From Perkinsus olseni (lineage: Eukaryota; Perkinsozoa; Perkinsida; Perkinsidae), in contig JABANP010000005.1 of assembly GCA_013115135.1 (NCBI GenBank), positions 310,001-374,000 of the forward strand: a DNA stretch of 64,000 nt, in the 5' to 3' direction. The translations under genes were made by a program, and so were the position numbers. Under the pieces are notes generated by a model that saw only the letters and a list, made by a program, of their open reading frames with translations, was not told the DNA's origin and did not search any database. How positions within the stretch are numbered: the first letter of the stretch is position 1; the number at the start of each line of letters is the position of its first letter. Of this stretch, positions 2,734-50,800 are shown in pieces.

Positions 2734-3371
2734 GTTTCTCGCTCCGAATTGAAGGAAACACGAGCTTGAGTTGTTACTCTTCTCGCTTGATTCCCTTCCC
2801 TTCTCCACGTGCTTGACCTTTTCTAGCTCGGCTTTCTTCATCTAGAGATTGTATAGCCGACTAGCTCGTTAGGGAGCTGGTGGTAGAGGCTGTCTCTATC
2901 GACGATCGTGTGTGTTCCGGCTGTTTTTTGGAACAAGAGCCGTTATAGGACGTGATGAGGTCGTGAGTTCAGTCCTCAAAACTTTTGAGTCAAAAGGTAC
3001 ATTTCTTTCAAGCTAATTCGAGGATGATATTGTCCGTCCCCCGAGGGACACAGCTTTCGGTACGGCATCTATTGCCTCTCTACCGCCAGTTTGTAGAATT
3101 CGGTGCCCCTACTCAGTATAATTTGAGGCTTGTGGAGAGTATTTTTTCAGAAGTGTTAGTACGATGATGTCGGTGATGGCAAACGCTCGCCGGCCTAGCC
3201 TGCTCCGTGTCGCTGATTCTCTCAGAACAGAATTCTGCTCGATGAAGCTCGAAGACTAGATTATGTGCTTCCGATCATAAATCCTGGGCGAACTGTGCCG
3301 GTGATTATGATTCATAACACCGACACAGTTCTTCCAGGATTTATGAATAAGTTACTCAGAGTAACATATGA
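2734..3371. other. Intergenic, with imperfect inverted repeat
   Basis: No supported gene. Positions 3276-3345 form an imperfect inverted repeat with about 28-bp arms (CATAAATCCTGG at the left, CCAGGATTTATG at the right, about three mismatches) around a short centre. It may be a small foldback element or a hairpin in an untranslated region. Confidence 0.5.
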
Positions 3372-39802: not shown

Positions 39803-41089
39803 ATGAAAGCTGAGCACGACGAGAAGAAATGCACTAACCTTCACGCGATTGTGAATGTCATCCTGGCGGCTATTGGTAGGTTGCCGACGGAGCGAAGCGT
39901 TTCATGTTTGTATTTTTCAGGCTTAGGAGTGGTATCACTGCCGAGTATAATAGCAAGATGTGGCTGGGTGGGAGGGATACTCCTATTGCTGGCAGCGGCC
40001 TTAGTGACCGACTACCTCATCTGCAAGCTCCATACCGCCGTCAGCATACATCCCTCGGGAACCCCGATCCACACCTACGAGCAGCTCGGCAGGGTCTGCT
40101 TCGGGAGAGTGGGACAGATCCTCGTGGTTGCTGTCGTCCATCTCACAATGACGGGAGTGTGCTCAGCTATGCTGCTCCTGCTAGGGCAAAATACTGAGAA
40201 GATGCTGCCGCAGCTATCGGTTAAGGTATGGACGTGCATTTGGGCAGCTCTTTGCGCTCCCTTGTCCTGGCTGAGATCTTTCAAAGAGATCTCATACGTG
40301 TCGGCCGTGGGCCTCATCGGTATCCTAGGTGTCTTCGTCATCATCGCCGCCCGAGGCATCGACCATGGCGCCAATCGTGGTGACGAAGTACAGCACGATG
40401 TGGTTCGCCCCGATCTGCTCATGTGGACGGTTTCCTTCGGGAATGCTGTTCTGTCGTATCAGATAGCGAACGTTACCCCAACTCTTATACGAGACATGAG
40501 AACCCCTGCCTCTTTCCCAAAGGTTGTCTCTCTCGGTCTCCTTATCGTCTTTATGGTCTACGTCGGGCTGGGCGCCAGCGGCTACTACGGCTACGGCAGA
40601 AGTCTTATAGATGACCCGATTATTAACAGCATCGCCCCTGCTGGTTCAACACTTGACGCCTGGGGGTATGCTCTGGTCGTGGCCATTTTGGTTATGTGCT
40701 TTCCGCACTATCTGGTTATGCTGCTGCCCATAGTAGCCTCTATCGAGTACGCCTTCCACGTTGATGTTATGGATACTTCGCTGAGAAGCTTTACTAAGAG
40801 GATTGTCCTTCGTACTCTCTTTGTCGGCTTTACGTTGATCGTCGCTATCGCTGTCCCGAGTGTTGAGAAATTGGTGGACTTACTGGGTGTCTTCACGATG
40901 GTCATAATCGCTATGCTGCTGCCAGCGATCCTTTATTGCCGTATGAGAATACTTAACGAAGGTTCATTGAAAAAGATTTTTACAAACCACCCGCTAGAAA
41001 TGCTGGTATTGACTTTTCTGACACTCCTAGCTGTGGTCATTATGGTCGTCGGTGGTTATGCAGCGATAGACAGCTTCCAAAGCCCCTGA
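39803..41089 (+). CDS. AAAP-family amino acid transporter, copy 1
   Basis: Amino acid/auxin permease (Aa_trans; SLC36/38-like), proton- or sodium-coupled amino acid carrier with about 11 membrane helices. Exons 39803-39875 and 39921-41089 are separated by a 45-nt intron (GTAGGT...TTTCAG) that is itself open, and removal gives 413 residues. The conserved start of helix 1 reads AAIG then LGVVSLPSIIARCGWVGG. Other landmarks are HTYEQLGRVCFGRVG, PLSWLRSFKEISYVSAVGLI and GASGYYGYGRSLIDDPI. The cytosolic N-terminus is shorter than in the other copies. First of four head-to-tail paralogues. Confidence 0.9.
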   Translation: MKAEHDEKKCTNLHAIVNVILAAIGRLPTERSVSCLYFSGLGVVSLPSIIARCGWVGGILLLLAAALVTDYLICKLHTAVSIHPSGTPIHTYEQLGRVCFGRVGQILVVAVVHLTMTGVCSAMLLLLGQNTEKMLPQLSVKVWTCIWAALCAPLSWLRSFKEISYVSAVGLIGILGVFVIIAARGIDHGANRGDEVQHDVVRPDLLMWTVSFGNAVLSYQIANVTPTLIRDMRTPASFPKVVSLGLLIVFMVYVGLGASGYYGYGRSLIDDPIINSIAPAGSTLDAWGYALVVAILVMCFPHYLVMLLPIVASIEYAFHVDVMDTSLRSFTKRIVLRTLFVGFTLIVAIAVPSVEKLVDLLGVFTMVIIAMLLPAILYCRMRILNEGSLKKIFTNHPLEMLVLTFLTLLAVVIMVVGGYAAIDSFQSP

Positions 41090-41446
41090 TTATTTTTATG
41101 CCGTCCCCATGTAGCATTCAGGTTCGGACGGGTCCCCATCTTTCCTTCCATCTCTTGACGCTTTCCGCGCCTTTTTCGCTGATTTCTGGCTCACAGCAGC
41201 CAACTAGTCCGAGTGTTCTGCGGCTTATCGGACGGCTTCTCAGAAGGAGGGCGGCGCCGCGGTCCCCATGGCCATAGAATTTTTCATTACTTCAATACCA
41301 TCACCTTCACGGCCTTCAAAACGCTATTTTTCTCTTCTACAGAAGCTATCCGTATTGCGTTTGAGTCGGACGAGGAGACCATCTTGTTTAATGCGGCCTC
41401 TCCTTCTGCTCACCCGTGGTTGGTAGTTTCTCTTTACTCGGCCCTA
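41090..41446. other. Spacer between transporter copies 1 and 2
   Basis: 3' flank of copy 1 and 5' flank of copy 2. An open frame from 41213 runs into copy 2, but ATG 41447 is the more sensible start. Confidence 0.5.
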
Positions 41447-42879
41447 ATGAGCCAGGTAAATCGATCCGATTCGGAACCGTGTACATCCTCAGTGGGCGAG
41501 GATTCCATTGACCACAAGGTCAGCTGCGATCTAAGCGAAGACTCTGGTGCGGGGAAGTGCTCCAATCTCCGATCCATTTTGAATATCATCCTTACAGCCA
41601 TCGGTAATAGGAGGCAGTGGCGCAGCGGTTAGCGTCTCCGTCTGTCTCGTAGATGGTCGTAGGTTCGATTACGGGTTTTCTTACACCGCTGCTATTTCTC
41701 GTTGTATTGTATTATTCAGGTTTGGGCGTCATCACCCTCCCAACCGTTATGGCGAAGTGTGGCTGGATCGGAGGGGTTATTGTCCTCTTCTTCGGTGCCG
41801 CCTTGTCGGACTACATGGTCTGCAACCTCTACCGGGCCGTCACGAATCATCCCAAAGGAGATCCGATCAACACCTACGAGGAGCTCGGCAGAGTTTGCTT
41901 CGGCCGTGCTGGACAGATCATCACCGCCCTCATTGTGCACGTCACGATGATCGGTGTTTGCGCCACCCTCCTTCTCCTTCTGGGCCAGAATACCCAGAAG
42001 TTGGCACCACAGCTCTCGGTGACTGTCTGGTGCGTCATCTGGGCGGCTCTATGCACTCCCCTCTCCTGGATACGGTCTCTCAAGGACATGTCCTATGTGG
42101 CCCTCGTAGGCCTCCTCGGTATCATCGCCCTCTTCATTATCATCGCCGCTAACGGAGTCGAGCATGGAGTCACTACCGATGAGGAAGTCGAGTACGATCT
42201 TATCAGCAGCGACCCGCTTAACTGGGCCATCTCTTTCGGCAACGCGGTGCTGTCCTACCAGATCGCTAGTGCTACTCCCAACCTACTTCGCGAGATGAAG
42301 ACGCCGGCGGCCTTCCCTAAGGTGGCCTCTATCAGCTTCTTCATAGTGTTCTCGATCTACGTTGGTGTCGGTGCTTGCGGCTATTACGGATATGGTCGAA
42401 GCCTTATAGAAGTGCCTATCCTTGATAGCATCGCTCCGTCGAATCTGCCGCTCGATGCTTGGGGTTATGCCCTGGTCATCTCGATGCTTGCGCTGGCCTT
42501 CCCCCATTATCTGGTTCTCCTCATGCCGATCGCTGCTTCTCTCGAAGCCGCTGTGAAGGTAGACGTTAAGAGCTCGTCAAAGCGCGACTTCCTCAAGAGG
42601 GCTGTGGCACGGACTATACTGGTCGTCATAACCCTCGTCATTGCCATCACGGTGCCCAGCGTGAACAATCTCATAGACCTCATGGGTGTGTTTACAGTGA
42701 TCGCCATGGCTGCTATCCTCCCTGCTCTGTTCTATGTGAGGATGAAGGTTCTCAACCAAGGCTCCTTCATGGCTGTGATAAAGTCTAACTGGATTGAAAT
42801 GTCTATTATCCTCTTTCTTACCCTCCTTTGCCTGCTGCTCATGGGCGCAGGAGGTTACGTGGCTATCGTCAACTTCTAA
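41447..42879 (+). CDS. AAAP-family amino acid transporter, copy 2
   Basis: Exons 41447-41603 and 41720-42879 form a 438-residue, about 11-helix carrier. The N-terminal tail is Ser/Asp-rich (SEPCTSSVGEDSIDHK), then KCSNLRSILNIILTAIG at the exon end. Exon 2 opens GLGVITLPTVMAKCGWIGG, with NTYEELGRVCFGRAG and GACGYYGYGRSLIEVPI. The intron is 116 nt, against 45-66 in the other copies, because it carries a tRNA-like insert. A 98-bp stretch (41836-41933) is identical to copy 3. The protein ends GGYVAIVNF. Confidence 0.9.
41608..41690 (+). repeat. tRNA-like (A-box/B-box) insert within transporter intron
   Basis: Inside the 116-nt intron lies TGGCGCAGCGG, an exact match to the Pol III A-box consensus. 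About 45 nt later is GGTTCGATTAC, close to a B-box. An anticodon-arm-like hairpin CGTCT/AGATG with loop GTCTCGT lies between. The acceptor and T stems do not pair, so it is a tRNA pseudogene or SINE head rather than a functional tRNA. Removing about 70 nt would leave an intron of typical length. Confidence 0.6.
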
Positions 42880-43395
42880 GACAATCACCATAGCTGGTAT
42901 CTTGACGTGACTTTGTCTTTTCTACGCTGAGGTGTCCCGCGTAGACTAACCGACGTGATTCCTGTGTGGTATAATCAGAACCATCCCTTCGGCCGGTTCG
43001 CAGTTCTGCTCGTTCCTGTTTTATTATTTACTCCTTCACGTCCGTTCTGGCGGGGCCGATAGCCTCCGCAAGCTTCTAGTTTCAACGTATCCTCCCCCCT
43101 CAGCCATCACCGCCATCACCATTGTTTTCGCGGTTTGCCGGTTTAGGAGGGTTGCTGGTACCATACGATTTCTCCCTCACTTGTTATTCTGGCACTTCCG
43201 GTATCGCAGCGGGTTGATTCCGTGCGGGTTTCACTCCTCTGTTCCGGAAGGGCCGTTTCCCTTCACAAGTTGTTCCCCTTTCCCGTCATCAGTTTTGCGT
43301 CGATGAAGACAGGCTTGCCGCCTCTTCGGGATGGTCCCATGCCATGGTCTATTCCCACTTAGCCTTGTTTCTTCCTTTCTTTTCTTCGTGGCCGT
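42880..43395. other. Spacer between transporter copies 2 and 3
   Basis: Pyrimidine-rich intergenic DNA of about 0.5 kb; no gene seen. Confidence 0.5.
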
Positions 43396-44808
43396 ATGAG
43401 CCTCGCTGGTAATCAAGATCATCATAATCCAGGCTCAGTGGCCTCTTCTTTGAAGCTTTCAGAGGACTCCACCATCAGCGACTGGACAGAATCCAAGGCA
43501 GCAGCAGACAGCGCCGACGACGACAACTCTCACAAGTGTTCTAATGTTCGTTCTATCATCAACATCGTGCTGACAGCGATTGGTAGGAGAGGCCGTCGGT
43601 TGAGCTGCCCCTTGTGACGTATCCTCATGATTCTTCTTCCTTGCTCAGGTTTGGGCGTCATCACCCTCCCAACCGTCATGGCCACCTGTGGCTGGATCGG
43701 TGGCATTCTGGTTCTCTTCGTCGCCGCCGCCCTGTCGGACTACATGGTCTGCAACCTTTACAAAGCCGTCACGAATCATCCCAAAGGAGATCCGATCAAC
43801 ACCTACGAGGAGCTCGGCAGAGTTTGCTTCGGCCGTGCTGGACAGATCATCACCGCCCTCATCGTGCACGTCACGATGACCGGTGTTTGCGCCACCCTCC
43901 TCCTCCTTCTGGGTGAAAATACCCAGAAGTTAGCGCCGGAGCTGTCGGTGACTGTATGGTGTGTCATCTGGGCGGCCATCTGCCTTCCTTTGTCGTGGCT
44001 TAGATCTCTCAAGGAGATCTCTTATGTCGCTATGGTTGGTCTCATCGGCGTCATAGCGCTTTTCATCATCATCGCAGCGAAGGGTATCGAGAATGGCATC
44101 ACTACCGATGAGGAGATCCAGTATGATCTCTTCAACGGCGACGCCCTTACGTGGGCTGTCTCTTTCGGTAACGCCATCCTGTCCTATCAGATGGCTAGTG
44201 CTACTCCAACTCTCATTCGCGAGATGATCACACCATCGGCCTTCCCGAGGAGTGCCTCCGCAGGTCTCCTCATCGTCTTCATCATCTACGTTGGCGTCGG
44301 TGCTTGCGGCTATTACGGCTATGGACGGAATCTTATCGATGTTCCTATCATGAACAGCATCGCTCCGTCGGGTCAAGCTCTCGACGCTTGGGGTTACGTT
44401 GCAGTGATCGCCATGCTTCTACTGGCCTTCCCTCACTACTTGGTCATCCTCATGCCCATCGCCGCTTCGCTCGAGTACGCCGTCAACATTGATGTAGACA
44501 GCACGGCCAAGCGCGATCTCATCAAGAGGATCGTTGCTCGTACCTTCCTGGTTGCCATCACCCTCGTCATTGCCATTGTCGTTCCTAGCGTTGACAAGCT
44601 CATCAACCTAATGGGCGTGTTCACCATGATTGCCATGGCTGGAGTCCTCCCTGCTCTGTTCTATACTAGAATACGTGTATTCAACGAGGGCTCGCTGAAG
44701 GCTGTCTGGAAGGCCCATCGGCTGGAGATGTGCCTTCTGTGCGCCCTCACTCTCCTCTGTCTACTAGTGATGGGAGCTGGCGGCTACCAATCGATCGTGG
44801 ATTTCTAA
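43396..44808 (+). CDS. AAAP-family amino acid transporter, copy 3
   Basis: Exons 43396-43582 and 43649-44808 are split by a 66-nt intron at the same codon position and phase as the other copies, giving 448 residues. The N-tail (SEDSTISDWTESKAAADS) is low-complexity, then KCSNVRSIINIVLTAIG. Exon 2 is closest to copy 2 (GLGVITLPTVMATCGWIGG; NTYEELGRVCFGRAG) and the two share an identical 98-bp tract here at 43765-43862. About 11 helices; ends GGYQSIVDF with TAA. The likely role is amino acid uptake or vacuolar export. Confidence 0.9.
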
Positions 44809-45234
44809 TCTCCGATTGTTTTTGTCGCAGAATCGGCTCCCGTGATGTTAAGAAACGGGACGTTCTGCTCCTAGTTCCGTTTAAGTAACAAGCTAAATCG
44901 CCGTGCTGGCGATTTGACGAGTGAAGCATAGTACTTCTCTCGTCTTCGTTCCTGACTAATCAGGTTTACTGTTTATACTTAGGCTTCAGTGTCTCTTATC
45001 AAGTATCTCCGAGAGAATACCGTGACGATGCCGTGCGGGCACCATCTGTGTTTCTTTGAGCTTTGATATCTGGTATCGTTTCCACAGTGAAACTCTCCAT
45101 AACGCGGCCTTGCGTTCCGTCCCCAGGACGTCTCTTGTCTCGAGCCTGGGAAGGAGCGAGAAGTCCCACAGTGTGGTTGCGCTTGCAGTTGAGAAGAATT
45201 ACGGTGGGAACATTGATTCCCCCTCTCTTTGTGT
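44809..45234. other. Spacer between transporter copies 3 and 4
   Basis: About 0.4 kb, no gene seen. Confidence 0.5.
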
Positions 45235-46743
45235 ATGGCCGGTAAGTGTCTAGGGTACTTCAACAACAAGAATGCGTTGAGCGATTCGGAGACTTTCACC
45301 CAGGAGGTGACTGTCTCTGAGACCAGTGTCACTACTTCCTCCATCACTACTAGCGTTAACTCTGGCATCACCTCTAAGCCGACTTCTCCTTCTTCTGCTA
45401 CTGACCTAAAAACTACTCCCTCTTTACCTCAAGGGAAGTGCAGTAATATAAGATCTGTATTTAATCTCATTCTGACAGCAATTGGTAAGTCGAGTATCTT
45501 CGACACACTTGGGCGTCTCTTGACAGTCTTGTTTTCAGGCATCGGCGTTATCATGCTGCCTACCACATTTGCCAACTGCGGCTGGTTTGGTGGTCTACTT
45601 ATCTTGTTCGTGGTAGCTGTTATCTCAAATCATATGGTGGGGAAAATTTACGTTGCATACAGCAGCCACCCCAAAGGAGAAGCCATCAACACCTATGAGC
45701 AGCTTGGCTATGTCTGTTTCGGCAGCGCTGGTGCCATTGCTACAGCTGGAATAGTTCATATTACTATGACTGGTTGCTGTTCCACTCTATTGTTGCTATT
45801 GGGGGAAAACACTCAGAAGCTGATTCCGATGGCCGGGTTGTCGAGCAAGGTTTGGTGTTGTATTTGGGCTGCTATCTGCTGGCCTCTGACGTGGTTGAAG
45901 TCGCTCAATGAAGTGTCATACGTCTCCGCCTTCGGTATGGCGGCACTCATCGTCCTCTTCATCCTCATTGTTGTCAACGGCATCACAAACGGGATCACCA
46001 CTGATGAGGACAATTCCTACGACTGGTGGATATGGAATCCACTCGAGTTCGGCGTCTCCTTCGGCAACGCTATGCTCTCGTACCACGTCACAAACGTCTT
46101 GGCTACACTCATTCGTGACATGAAAACACCAAGTGCCCTACCGAAAGTCGCCACTGTCTCCTATCTGTGCATTTTTGTGATATATGGTGGAATTGCTGGT
46201 TGCGGCTACTTCGGCTACGGCAACACGTTGGTGGATGTCCCCATCATTGATCGCATTGCTCCTCCCACAGGTGGTCTGGATGGTTGGGGTTATACCTGCG
46301 TTATCTCACTCATATGCCTCTGCTTCCCACACTATATCGTACTGTTATTCCCTATTGCGGCTTCATTGGAGTATCAGTTACTACCGCTACCTCCGTTCAA
46401 GGTCGATGACCCGGAGAATGCAAAAGGGACGATACCAATTGCCAAGCGGATCGCTGTACGCACTGTCCTAGTGGCGATCACTCTTGTCATTGCTATCGTT
46501 GTACCAAGTGTTCAGAAGCTCATTGACTTACTCAGTGTATTCACCATGACTGCCATGGCCGGCATTCTACCTGGTATTTTCTACATCAGAATGCGTGTCC
46601 TCAACGAAGGATCGTTCATGACTGTGTGGAAGTCCAGTAGGATCGAGCTGTCTATTTTGTTCCTTATGATGGCTTTGAGTGGGCTGATGATAGGAGTGGG
46701 CGGATACGAGGCTATTGTTACATTCTACAGGGTGCCGACTTAA
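45235..46743 (+). CDS. AAAP-family amino acid transporter, copy 4 (stop codon altered by MITE)
   Basis: Exons 45235-45484 and 45539-46743, 54-nt intron (open, in phase), give 484 residues. It has the longest N-tail of the four, rich in Ser/Thr (SVTTSSITTSVNSGITS), then KCSNIRSVFNLILTAIG. Helix 1 is GIGVIMLPTTFANCGWFGG. It is the most diverged copy and has an extra loop (PLPPFKVDDPENAKG) before the last helices. Paralogues 2 and 3 stop directly after '...NF' or '...DF'. Here GGYEAIVTF continues YRVPT before TAA, and those five codons lie in the terminal repeat of an inserted MITE. Confidence 0.9.
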   Translation: MAGKCLGYFNNKNALSDSETFTQEVTVSETSVTTSSITTSVNSGITSKPTSPSSATDLKTTPSLPQGKCSNIRSVFNLILTAIGKSSIFDTLGRLLTVLFSGIGVIMLPTTFANCGWFGGLLILFVVAVISNHMVGKIYVAYSSHPKGEAINTYEQLGYVCFGSAGAIATAGIVHITMTGCCSTLLLLLGENTQKLIPMAGLSSKVWCCIWAAICWPLTWLKSLNEVSYVSAFGMAALIVLFILIVVNGITNGITTDEDNSYDWWIWNPLEFGVSFGNAMLSYHVTNVLATLIRDMKTPSALPKVATVSYLCIFVIYGGIAGCGYFGYGNTLVDVPIIDRIAPPTGGLDGWGYTCVISLICLCFPHYIVLLFPIAASLEYQLLPLPPFKVDDPENAKGTIPIAKRIAVRTVLVAITLVIAIVVPSVQKLIDLLSVFTMTAMAGILPGIFYIRMRVLNEGSFMTVWKSSRIELSILFLMMALSGLMIGVGGYEAIVTFYRVPT

Positions 46744-47247
46744 AAAGGGCCCACCCCTCTTGATTTTTCCGTGCGAACGAGTTGAGAGTTGCAACGCACA
46801 CCAATCGGAAGCTCTCGTCGAGCTCTACACAACTCCGTTCTCAGAGTCATCTCACTCGCAAGTTTCACTCTCGAAATATCGATCGAAACGACAAAAAATC
46901 GCGCAAATTCGTTGGCAGAATCACCGACGCTGTGAAGTGCCGATGTGGAGGGCCTCGTTGAAGAAGTCGATGGAGGGCATTTTGAACATCTCCTGTTGCT
47001 CGGCGGCGGCCCCTCCCATAGGCAATTCACGCCGTCAGCATGGCCTCGGTGATTCTGCCAACGATTTTCCGCGATTTTTTGGCGTTTGGTTCGACATTTC
47101 GAGGGTTAAACTTTCGAGTGAGATGACGCTGAGCACGGAGTTGTGTAGAGCTCGACAAGAGCTTTCGATTGGTGTGCGTTACAACTCTCAACTCGTTCGC
47201 ACGAAAAATTCATGAGGGGTTTGCCCTTTTTAAGTCGGCACCCTGTA
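46726..47247. mobile_element. Foldback MITE, TA-flanked, Tc1/mariner-like
   Basis: Positions 46728-47245 start CAGGGTGCCGACTTAAAAAG and end with the reverse complement. TA lies at both outer edges (46726-46727 and 47246-47247), as in TA-duplicating Tc1/mariner elements. The two arms stay complementary for about 200 bp with scattered mismatches, so most of the 518 bp is one long hairpin around a short centre near 46,940-47,040. No transposase ORF is present, so it is non-autonomous. The left end lies inside the last codons of the upstream transporter. Confidence 0.88.
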
Positions 47248-47248
47248 G

Positions 47249-47896
47249 TACAAGCCCCTGGGATTCTCTATCCTTTATCTAGTCATTGTCCTCAGTGTGT
47301 CAAATTACGAGTTCATTGTATTTGGTACACTTCTTGTCTAGCATAGATTCCTACTTATCGTTTCTGTTTCTTCTTCTCGACTTGCTGCATTTCCGCTGTC
47401 TTGGAGCAGCCCTCACAGGAGCTCCAACATTCACAGCGAAATGCGAGTGAAAGACGATGATACCAGTTGCGTCATTATCCTCATGTTGAGTTGTATCAGA
47501 GTTCACTATCACGGTTCACGGTGGTATTACCACCGAACACCGAGCTCTAAACGATACGGATAGACCTGCCCAGTGCGCCGTGGTAGGTGGTCACACGAGT
47601 ACGCCGTGTCCACCTGATGCAACTGCCGGACGTACGGTGCCGTCGAGCCAGGAGCCCATCATTAATGTGCGGTCACTCCAAACTCAACGAACTGGGAGTT
47701 TAGTTCGTTTCATCTTTATTGGCAGCTGCTAAATGTATCAATAAATTATACAAGAATAGTACAGGGTGAATGCTGCTCGCTGCTGATGTACACTACGACA
47801 GCAGTTAGAGCATCACCTTGATGCGACGACGCCTAGTGCCCTCTGGCAGCTCGGCGGACCTCGGGGATGGCATCGGTCTGGACTAAGATGAGAACT
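47249..47896. other. Intergenic, no supported gene
   Basis: About 0.65 kb between the MITE and the 3' end of the DENN gene. It contains short inverted motifs (GGTGGTATTACCACC near 47,520) but no gene. Confidence 0.5.
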
Positions 47897-50800
47897 CTAA
47901 GTCAAGTTGTTGAAGATGCCAGATCTCACCTGTCCCAAGTTGATAGTGATGTGCCTCGTCCGTCGAGGCCGCGGACCGGCAAGGCTCACGCCTGTTGCCA
48001 AGTGACCAGACTGCTTCCGCCGGTACTGACGAATCCTCTCGTAGGTCTTCCGTCGATCGTCCAGGCCATTGTCCGAAGCCTTCGTGCCTGTCACACCATC
48101 ATGGGCCCACATGACATTCAACTGCGCATTACCTGACTGATCGCTGTGACTTGGTCGGCTCTCACCGGGCGATGGCGGGACAAGCTGCTCCTGCGAGCTC
48201 GAGGATCTCGGCCCTTGGTGTGACTCTTTTACAGCAGGAGGATGTGGTAGACCGTGCGGCTCACCACTACGGACACGTCTATGCCTCGGAGGAGTACCGG
48301 TCTGTTGGAGTGTCGCTCCGTTCGCCATCTGCTCGGCCGCCGCGTCCTGCACGTAGGACTTCACCATCTCGAACATCGTCTCGGGCTGGCAGCCTTTGAC
48401 CGATATCACAACGCCCAAAAACAGTTCAATATTATACATGAGCTCAGTGTCACGATCAGAGCCCCTCTGATGGGCTATTGTGTACATCTCAGTCAGTGTT
48501 CTGAAGTTGCAGATCCGCCGATGATGAATCTCCTGGACGAGGGTATCATCTATCTGGACGCCAGCTCGAGCGAGATGGTTTGAAAGCATCGGATGGTCTC
48601 CAATACAGGTGGTGAAGGTGGGGGTCCACACGCCGTCACACGAGGAGCAGGTGACCTCAACACGGTCGTGGCCCCACCAGTATTTGGCGCACTGCCAGAA
48701 GTCACTGATGCGCATACCACAGTCAGGGCAGTTGCCGCCGATGTCGCACAGTCCGAGGACATGAGGGCCTCGAAGGGAGATCTCTTCGGTTGCTGAACCA
48801 CCGGCAGCCAGCCGGTCGAGGACCCGCCAGAGAACGTGGGACTTGGCACGACCAGCTCGCAGGTGGGTGACGGTCGCGCTGACCAGAACGCCACGAGCCC
48901 GCCGATGGGCCGCTGACACCAGGCCACAATTCGGTATCGCAGGGACGATCTTCGTTTCTGGCTCGACCTGATGATGATCCAGAAAACGGTGTGCGAAGTC
49001 TTAAAGACCGGCTGGGGGACTCTACCTGGAGGCTCTGAGTGGCCCTCATGAGCCACTCAGTCGGCCGCGACCTAGCATCGATCGGAGATTCCGGCACCGG
49101 CGGATCGGGCGTTGATATCAGAACTGGCGGGGCGACGTCGATGACCACGGGCTCGTATGCTCTCTTGACCAGCAGCAATATTTGGTTGGACGTCCGCAAG
49201 GCTGCCATCTTGCCCCCATCGGATGCCCTGAGGGAGGTCACGCGTGAACTCCCTCACAAACAAGCGCCCCTCCCTACTCTGTCGACCCCGCAGCAACATC
49301 GCCATCCGCCGCAGCCCAAACCTGAGCAATATGTGCGACGATAATTCAGAGACCGTACCCCTACCTGACAACCCTTGTCGAAGACCCAGGCTTTTGGGTG
49401 TGTCAACCACGCTAAGCAGGAAGAGGTCGAAGGTGTGCGTCCGGTGGCGATCCAAGAACAAATCCAGAAATGGCTCCACGAAGAGTTTCTGATTACCCCA
49501 CTCGTCCAGGTCAACTGTGTTCTCTGGGCGGCGACCTGAGGTTGAGACGAGTTTCGCTGAGATACATCTCCTCCGATAGAACAACGGCGTTTGTTGACCG
49601 GAAATTTCGCGGTCTGTCGAGTGTGCGGGATGGTCTTCACCTTGCGACTTGCAAGTTGCCAGGACCCGAGTACGACGACTGCTGTGTGCTACTTACCGAG
49701 AAAACCCGCAACATCGAAGGTTCGCTCCTCACCGTCATTCTCCCGGACGTATCTGTCAACCAGAGTCGGGGAAGGGAGCCCTCGATAGGCAGCCTTACTT
49801 CTTATAGTTGGCAAACTGTCTGGTCATTGCCTCGAGGCACGCGGCTTGAACCCGAAGCTTGAACTGAAACCTAATGCACCAACGACAAGTTACGATTTTC
49901 AAAGACAATATCCAGCCCCAGGCCCGCAGTGAAATTCGTGACGAGGCCAGACAGAAGAATGGCAATCTCATCGATGAGTCCTCCTCAAACTTCGAACTTT
50001 GTGATTAGGGATCGCTGAGCCGTGGAATACGGCCGTGGAATACGCTGAGCTACGGATGATGTAGGAATGCTCTCTTACTTGCTGTGATGCCGAGGGGTCC
50101 GCGTCTTGCGGCGGATGGGTCGGTAGTCGGAGCTGTTGGTACTAGACATGGTCTGAGATAGACAGTGGCGGACAGCTGGTGGTGGATGTTGGAGGGAAGA
50201 TACTCACCCCTTGCGACCATCGGACGGCGGGGACGGGAGCCGCCTGAGTGTCATATGGACGGAAATAGGAGGACCAAAACTCGTCCAACGCTGCCTCCAG
50301 GGAGTTCGCGCCTGACCGGCAAGGGAAGGGTCGATGCTACCGAAATACTGGGTTGAATCGGAGAGCTTGTCGACGAAGCATCGGGCAGTAACGAAGATGT
50401 CGTCCTACCGGAGTCCCCCTGGCTCAAGATGGACTGCTCATCACTCCCTAGTGAGAAGGTAGAGGCATTGAGATCCACCGATGCCCTATCGCCTCGGGAT
50501 CTAGCGGTGTACTGCTCCCTCAAGGCATCCAGGCCGAGCACACGGCAAGCGTCGGAGCACAAGGGAGGAAGCTGCCGCTTGAGGACCTGATACGGGGGGC
50601 TGAGTAAAAATACTGCGCACCTTCGTCCTTCGGCCTCGAGTCAAAATCATCCGGAATAAACTAGCATAGGTCTTTATACTATATTCATTGTTCTCTTTTG
50701 TCACTATGCGCACGTCGATACTTCTGATTCCTACGCCCAACGTGGAGAAGCACAACGCAGTGATGGTCTTACAGTGGCCATGGCGAGAGGGAGGACTGGC

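What the first reader, a model, noticed from the sequence alone, without database searches (positions are those of the whole stretch)
46726..47248. A MITE inserted into a stop codon and supplied a new one
The TA at 46726-46727 is read in frame as the first two bases of TAC in transporter copy 4. The same TA is repeated after the element, followed by G (47248). Removing the element and one TA gives ...ACA TTC TAG, so the ancestral stop was TAG directly after '...VTF', exactly where paralogues 2 and 3 stop ('...VNF', '...VDF'). The insertion split TAG, added five codons from the terminal inverted repeat (YRVPT) and ended translation at a TAA within that repeat. A coding-competent repeat end with an early stop can make insertion nearly harmless. 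The 3' UTR now starts with a 500-nt hairpin, which could affect mRNA stability or produce small RNAs.
Basis: partly seen in the sequence, partly recalled or inferred. Interest (0 to 1): 0.75.

Follow-up and report, generated by a model that had tools for sequence, protein, structure and literature searches.

The report
Mobile element landed in stop codon
In what appears to be the shellfish parasite Perkinsus olseni, a small hairpin-shaped mobile DNA element inserted exactly into the stop codon of an amino-acid transporter gene and supplied a replacement stop five amino acids later; it is a neat, well-supported but otherwise ordinary case of a jumping element touching a gene.

Summary
Confirmed. 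A 518-bp near-palindromic element (46728-47245) lies between two TA copies at the end of the fourth of four tandem Aa_trans genes. The genome looks like Perkinsus olseni. The P. marinus orthologue (86% by BLASTP, 93% in the multiple alignment) ends ...VTF without extension, so the ancestral stop was split and the protein gained YRVPT before a TAA in the terminal repeat. The repeat end occurs 54 times genome-wide, reversed control 0; one solo end has a paralogous element-free site. The family resembles Tc1/mariner MITEs: TA target, transposase-like remnants in two copies, no intact partner found. Stop landing is not a family habit: of 55 scored ends at 42 places, only this one meets a supported coding frame at a stop, about what chance allows. 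The stop at codon 6 of the repeat (44 of 54 ends) makes such landings mild but needs no selection. Hairpin effects on mRNA or small RNAs are untested; Piwi and RNase III domains exist. Known kind, new member.

The parts
45229..46743 (+). ORF of transporter copy 4 (Pfam Aa_trans PF01490, 5.7e-47), ending ...IVTF-YRVPT-TAA; the mechanical ORF starts at a TTG two codons before the first ATG and reads through a presumed in-frame intron that the P. marinus orthologue lacks
46726..46727 (+). left TA target duplication, first two bases of the split stop codon, now read as the start of TAC (Tyr)
46728..47245 (.). 518-bp MITE-like element, near-palindrome with ends CAGGGTGCCGACTTAAAAAGGGC
46726..46743 (+). 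new C-terminal codons TAC AGG GTG CCG ACT (YRVPT) and new stop TAA
46725..46930 (.). left arm of inverted repeat (206 nt, 90% complementary to the right arm; the first three bases lie outside the element)
47043..47248 (.). right arm of inverted repeat (last three bases outside the element)
47246..47248 (+). right TA target duplication plus G: with the left flank, the remainder of the ancestral TAG stop
43627..44808 (+). transporter copy 3 (second exon region), ends ...SIVDF TAA, no element
41653..42879 (+). transporter copy 2 (second exon region), ends ...AIVNF TAA, no element
39803..41089 (+). transporter copy 1, ends ...IDSFQSP TGA, no element

Best explanation
A non-autonomous, TA-targeting DNA transposon (a MITE of Tc1/mariner type) transposed into the TA of the TAG stop codon of transporter copy 4 in the P. 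olseni lineage after its split from P. marinus. Target duplication left TA at the left edge, where it joins the first base of the repeat as TAC; translation then runs AGG GTG CCG ACT and stops at TAA, which lies in the repeat. Because both ends of the element carry the same sequence, either orientation would have given the same five residues. The product is a transporter of normal length plus YRVPT, and the mRNA, if it extends through, carries a hairpin of about 500 nt at the start of its 3' UTR. Shown: element, boundaries, duplication, multi-copy family, extension-free orthologue. Inferred: the transposase type, the order of events, mild effect on the protein, any effect on the mRNA.
For: Boundaries and TA duplication. 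54 ends genome-wide, control 0; 98 blastn pieces, a lower bound. Orthologue P0005 of P. marinus ends VTF; P0006 (P. olseni, copy-3 type), P0007 (P. chesapeaki) and P0008 (P. marinus) also end at this column. A paralogous element-free site: the C516 solo end sits after GCTA, and the duplicate C7 locus reads GCTAACTCAAAGGTTAG there. Transposase-like helix-turn-helix remnants inside the C968 copy (88 aa, HTH_32 E 4.5e-4, below the curated cut-off) and the C20 copy (34 aa at 74% with one stop).
Against: No autonomous partner found: none of the 24 DDE_3 loci carries a recognisable end within its fetched flanks (five 4-mismatch hits to a 16-mer in 4 loci look like chance) and the remnant gave no homologues. 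No DNA of an empty allele was available. Copy 1 shows that a short tail (QSP) can arise in this gene family without an element. No transcript evidence.
Confidence: 0.93

Rival explanations
1. Stop-codon targeting as a strategy: the family prefers stop codons, or its repeat keeps a phase-0 stop under selection so that landing in TAA/TAG is nearly harmless.
For: Codon 6 read from the TA is a stop in 44 of 54 ends. The base before TA is C in 25 of 53 ends against 25% background (one-sided binomial p 0.0005), which would favour stops preceded by C.
Against: Of 55 scored ends at 42 places only the focal one enters a supported coding frame at a stop. The runner-up C516 appears to lie in an intron and the 122-codon phase-0 frame at C968 is antisense to a tandem gene. 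The codon-6 stop is in the AT-rich TIR, which transposase binding could conserve by itself; about one in four random sequences would have a phase-0 stop by codon 6 (own estimate). The two ends of a copy are not independent in the binomial test.
Confidence: 0.04
2. The element is removed from the mRNA as (part of) an intron, so the protein does not end in YRVPT: a donor-like AGG|GTGCCG in the left repeat and an acceptor-like CTGTAG at the right TA+G could be joined.
For: The right junction reads CCCTGTAG, a possible 3' splice site; copy 4 itself seems to have a short intron.
Against: The donor is poor by eye, and the frame would then run on into sequence that the paralogues do not have. No transcript data either way.
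Confidence: 0.04
3. The 3' hairpin has been co-opted: dsRNA at the start of the 3' UTR lowers expression of copy 4 or yields small RNAs that silence other copies. (This adds to the insertion reading and does not exclude it.)
For: z -29 hairpin; Piwi domain matches on 3 contigs (5 matches, 3 over the cut-off) and 4 Ribonuclease_3 matches, one in a 919-aa open frame, so the enzymes may exist. Rice Ghd2 is translationally repressed by a stowaway-like MITE in its 3' UTR through OsDCL3a (PMC5338036, abstract seen).
Against: No RNA data. The focal arms differ at 21 of 206 sites, 19 of these not shared with sibling C112, whose arms agree at those sites, so the duplex is not being kept perfect.
Confidence: 0.15

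Closest known systems
Tc1/mariner-derived MITEs with TA duplication (e.g. Submariner of Pandoravirus salinus, PMC4495683, passages seen; Stowaway of plants, recalled)
   Same: Short, terminal inverted repeats, TA duplication, no coding capacity, some relatives with decayed transposase remnants.
   Different: Long palindrome (206-nt arms); no transposase with matching ends was found here, and the ends were not compared with the published ones.
Bacterial MITE-like repeats that extend a protein and supply its stop (RU-1 in ECA3499, RU-2 in ECA4072, PMC2759123; QMITE2 in Coxiella enhC, PMC5896051; passages seen)
   Different: Bacteria; the passages do not describe insertion between the bases of a stop codon at a TA.
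Rice Ghd2 stowaway-like MITE in the 3' UTR (PMC5338036, abstract seen)
   Same: A MITE in the 3' UTR of a protein-coding gene.
   Different: There the effect on translation was tested; here it is only possible.

Membership tests
MITE | short element with terminal inverted repeats and no transposase gene of its own | tested here: met
   518 bp, 206-nt arms; its one long open frame (162 codons) is broken in the same-length sibling
MITE | multiple copies with the same ends in one genome | tested here: met
   54 ends with up to 2 mismatches, control 0; 98 blastn pieces
MITE | mobilised by a partner transposase that recognises the same ends | tested here: inconclusive
   no full-length partner seen; 24 DDE_3 loci without recognisable ends
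Tc1/mariner (IS630-Tc1-mariner) | TA target duplication | tested here: met
   TA at both edges of the focal copy and of most two-ended copies read; one edge of C69 (TG) and of C377 (AA) has decayed; paralogous element-free site at a TA
Tc1/mariner (IS630-Tc1-mariner) | transposase with helix-turn-helix and DDE/D domains in related copies | tested here: inconclusive
   HTH_32-like remnant only, E 4.5e-4, 21.1 bits against a cut-off of 33.7; no DDE part was seen in a copy of the family
Tc1/mariner (IS630-Tc1-mariner) | characteristic terminal sequence | not tested
   the CAGGG start resembles published mariner-type ends from memory only

The most novel reading that the evidence does not exclude
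The TIR works as a soft-landing device: since two of the three stop codons begin with TA, a TA-targeting element whose both ends close the phase-0 frame within six codons can sit in stop codons in either orientation at the cost of five residues, and selection keeps the stop in the repeat and the C|TA|G-like target bias.
Probability: 0.05. Interest if true: 0.65.

Novelty: new member of a known kind. Interest (0 to 1): 0.33.

Why it matters
It is a clean, base-exact example of how TA-targeting transposons and stop codons interact, with an extension-free orthologue that fixes the direction of change. It gives a simple genome-wide test in Perkinsus and elsewhere: count insertions of TA-targeting elements at stop-codon TAs against TAs elsewhere in 3' ends. 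It also documents a hairpin MITE family in a genus on whose transposons two searches of the held library listed few papers (7 and 6).

Tried and rejected
A second stop-codon case. C968:139391-140046 has a 122-codon open phase-0 frame and a reconstructed TAG, but the flank encodes a tandem relative of the upstream gene on the other strand (tblastn 1e-43, 42% over 157 aa), so that frame is antisense. C516:26199 has 117 open codons up to TAG, but its element-free duplicate on C7 shows two conserved coding stretches (17 synonymous, 0 non-synonymous codon changes in 72 codons compared) separated by what looks like a short intron with a CTAAC motif at the insertion point; the intron is my reading, not annotated. 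The phase-0 frames of 64-68 codons at C20, C100 and C116 are not among the 15 best on codon usage. That score was trained on the four window transporters, so the focal value of 35.0 is circular; only the ranking of the others is informative.

The 162-codon frame through the element is not kept in sibling C112. Dating from arm mismatches (21 of 206) was given up: some right-arm states also occur in other copies, so exchange between copies is possible. A paralogous empty site for C141 gave only element-bearing duplicates. A fused gene model of copies 3 and 4 elsewhere: none found. Homologues of the transposase remnant: none. Rfam over 41000-48000: two weak matches far below gathering scores.

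Coverage: 55 ends at 42 places were scored; 48 of the 54 pattern hits are among them. Left out: C100:86400, C377 (two) and C416 (two) as duplicates of scored flanks, and C124:87665, a 21-bp match only. C454, C202 and C697 and the second end C100:86655 were left out as duplicates too, and weak left ends at C168, C346 and C479 (5-7 mismatches) were not scored. The blastn places C557, C236, C340:48048, C7:2194, C669, C426 and C326:35582-35908 were not fetched; C747 showed no end. In the base-before-TA count two further ends were dropped (53 of 55; C165 and C668:93735).

Full report
What is there. The 518-bp element at 46728-47245 is bounded by TA at 46726-46727 and 47246-47247. Its arms are 206 nt at 90% complementarity with 112 nt between, and the strand folds with z -29.1 against 100 shuffles. 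It is one of two inverted-repeat pairs found in the window at arm length 24 or more and distance up to 1500.

The gene. Four tandem ORFs at 39803-46743 match Pfam Aa_trans (E 5.7e-47 to 1.4e-53). Copy 4 reads ...GGYEAIVTF-YRVPT-TAA. Copies 2 and 3 end ...AIVNF TAA and ...SIVDF TAA; copy 1 ends ...DSFQSP TGA, so it has a short tail of its own without any element. A search of about 5.8 billion proteins gave 7 hits (only the 7995 candidates sharing most words were scored). P0005, from P. marinus, is the orthologue: 433/501 by BLASTP, with gaps where copy 4's mechanical ORF reads through a presumed intron and in the variable N-terminus, 93% in the multiple alignment. It ends exactly at VTF. P0006 (P. 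olseni), P0007 (P. chesapeaki) and P0008 (P. marinus) are 55-57% identical to copy 4 and end in VDF, VNF and VTF. Window copy 3 and P0006 share 386 of 392 aligned residues, so the window is most likely P. olseni; this rests on that protein, not on a name given by a tool for G000.

The event. An orthologue without the tail, and TA-G on the right side, put the ancestral stop TAG directly after VTF. Insertion at its TA gave TAC AGG GTG CCG ACT TAA. The C before and G after the TA make the inverted repeat look one base longer, but other copies differ there.

The family. The 523-base query gave 98 blastn pieces in G000 (a lower bound). The 20-base end gave 54 matches with up to 2 mismatches, 0 in the reversed control. 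The two-ended copies range from 70 bp (C334:150174-150243) to 656 bp (C968:139391-140046), TAs included. C112:227545-228066 has the same length as the focal copy and differs at 61 of 522 positions in reverse orientation. Read from the TA, codon 6 is a stop in 44 of 54 ends, and YRVPT* exactly in 28 of 54. The C968 copy encloses an 88-residue open stretch with weak similarity to HTH_32 (E 4.5e-4, below the curated cut-off), and the C20 copy 34 residues of it at 74% identity with one stop. DDE_3 has 24 matches in G000, but no end of this family within their fetched flanks beyond five 4-mismatch hits to a 16-mer in 4 loci. So the Tc1/mariner assignment rests on TA duplication and a remnant, not on a partner element.

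Mobility seen elsewhere. The C516 end sits after GCTA. A duplicate on C7 matches on both sides (230/265 before, 262/279 after) and reads GCTAACTCAAAGGTTAG where C516 has about 220 bases starting with the TIR. Coding changes between the two in the adjoining stretches are 17 synonymous and 0 non-synonymous (72 codons), and the gap looks like a short intron. This supports insertion at TA; the far end of that copy is not recognisable.

Is stop-codon landing special? I scored the three upstream frames at 55 ends, 42 distinct places. The focal end leads, though it was in the training set. The next, C516 (9.5), is the intron case; the third scores 8.0 over 45 codons in another phase. Of 13 two-ended copies whose site was rebuilt, six read TAG at the site on the genome strand shown, but only the focal one is in frame with a supported gene. 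The window has 2802 TA dinucleotides. With an assumed gene per 3-5 kb and two thirds of stops starting with TA, some 0.3-0.5% of TAs are stop TAs, so among about 42 insertions 0.1-0.2 are expected there without any tolerance bias; one is unremarkable, the more so if insertions inside genes are lost. That is an estimate, not a measured rate. The base before TA is C in 25 of 53 ends against 25% (p 0.0005; the ends are not fully independent), which would raise it somewhat.

RNA consequences. If the transcript runs on, the 3' UTR begins with the hairpin. Piwi (5 matches, 3 over the cut-off) and Ribonuclease_3 (4 matches) domains are encoded, so small-RNA handling is possible. Nothing here shows that it happens.

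Comparison. Bacterial repeats are known to extend proteins and supply stops (PMC2759123, PMC5896051; passages). A rice MITE in a 3' UTR represses translation (PMC5338036; abstract). A Brassica Stowaway paper was looked at for its stop-codon passage, which concerns gene boundaries only (PMC3626606). In the searches made, of which I saw five papers in part and the rest as listings, I met no eukaryotic TA-targeting element described as inserted within a stop codon; the library lacks most subscription papers and the searches were few, so this is weak.

Verdict. It is an ordinary transposon event at an elegant place.

Noticed in passing
L088 (G000:C516:26199) and L105 (G000:C7:55000-55900): Element end inserted at a CTAAC motif inside what looks like a short intron; a paralogous locus lacks it. 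Adjoining coding stretches differ only synonymously (17 of 72 codons).
   Followed up: yes
L083 (G000:C968:139680-139943) and L084 (G000:C20:57397-57498): Two larger copies of the family enclose a transposase-like helix-turn-helix remnant.
   Followed up: partly
window 41500-44808: P. olseni protein FOZ61_000894 (P0006) seems to combine the first exon of window copy 2 with the second exon of copy 3: a gene-model error, a splice skip or a real rearrangement in that isolate (by eye).
   Followed up: no
window 46727-47215: The element holds a 162-codon open frame in the phase where T is codon position 3 and A position 1; it is broken in the same-length sibling C112.
   Followed up: yes
window 41614-41680: tRNA-like stretch (A- and B-box-like motifs by eye) in the presumed intron of transporter copy 2; ARAGORN and Rfam do not call it.
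   Followed up: partly
window 3275-3346: Short inverted repeat, 29-nt arms, 90% complementary, 14 nt apart.
   Followed up: no
G000:C66:94232-102115 and C369:41040-41279: Four DDE_3 matches of equal score, three of them in one 8-kb stretch about 3.8 kb apart: another transposon family.
   Followed up: no
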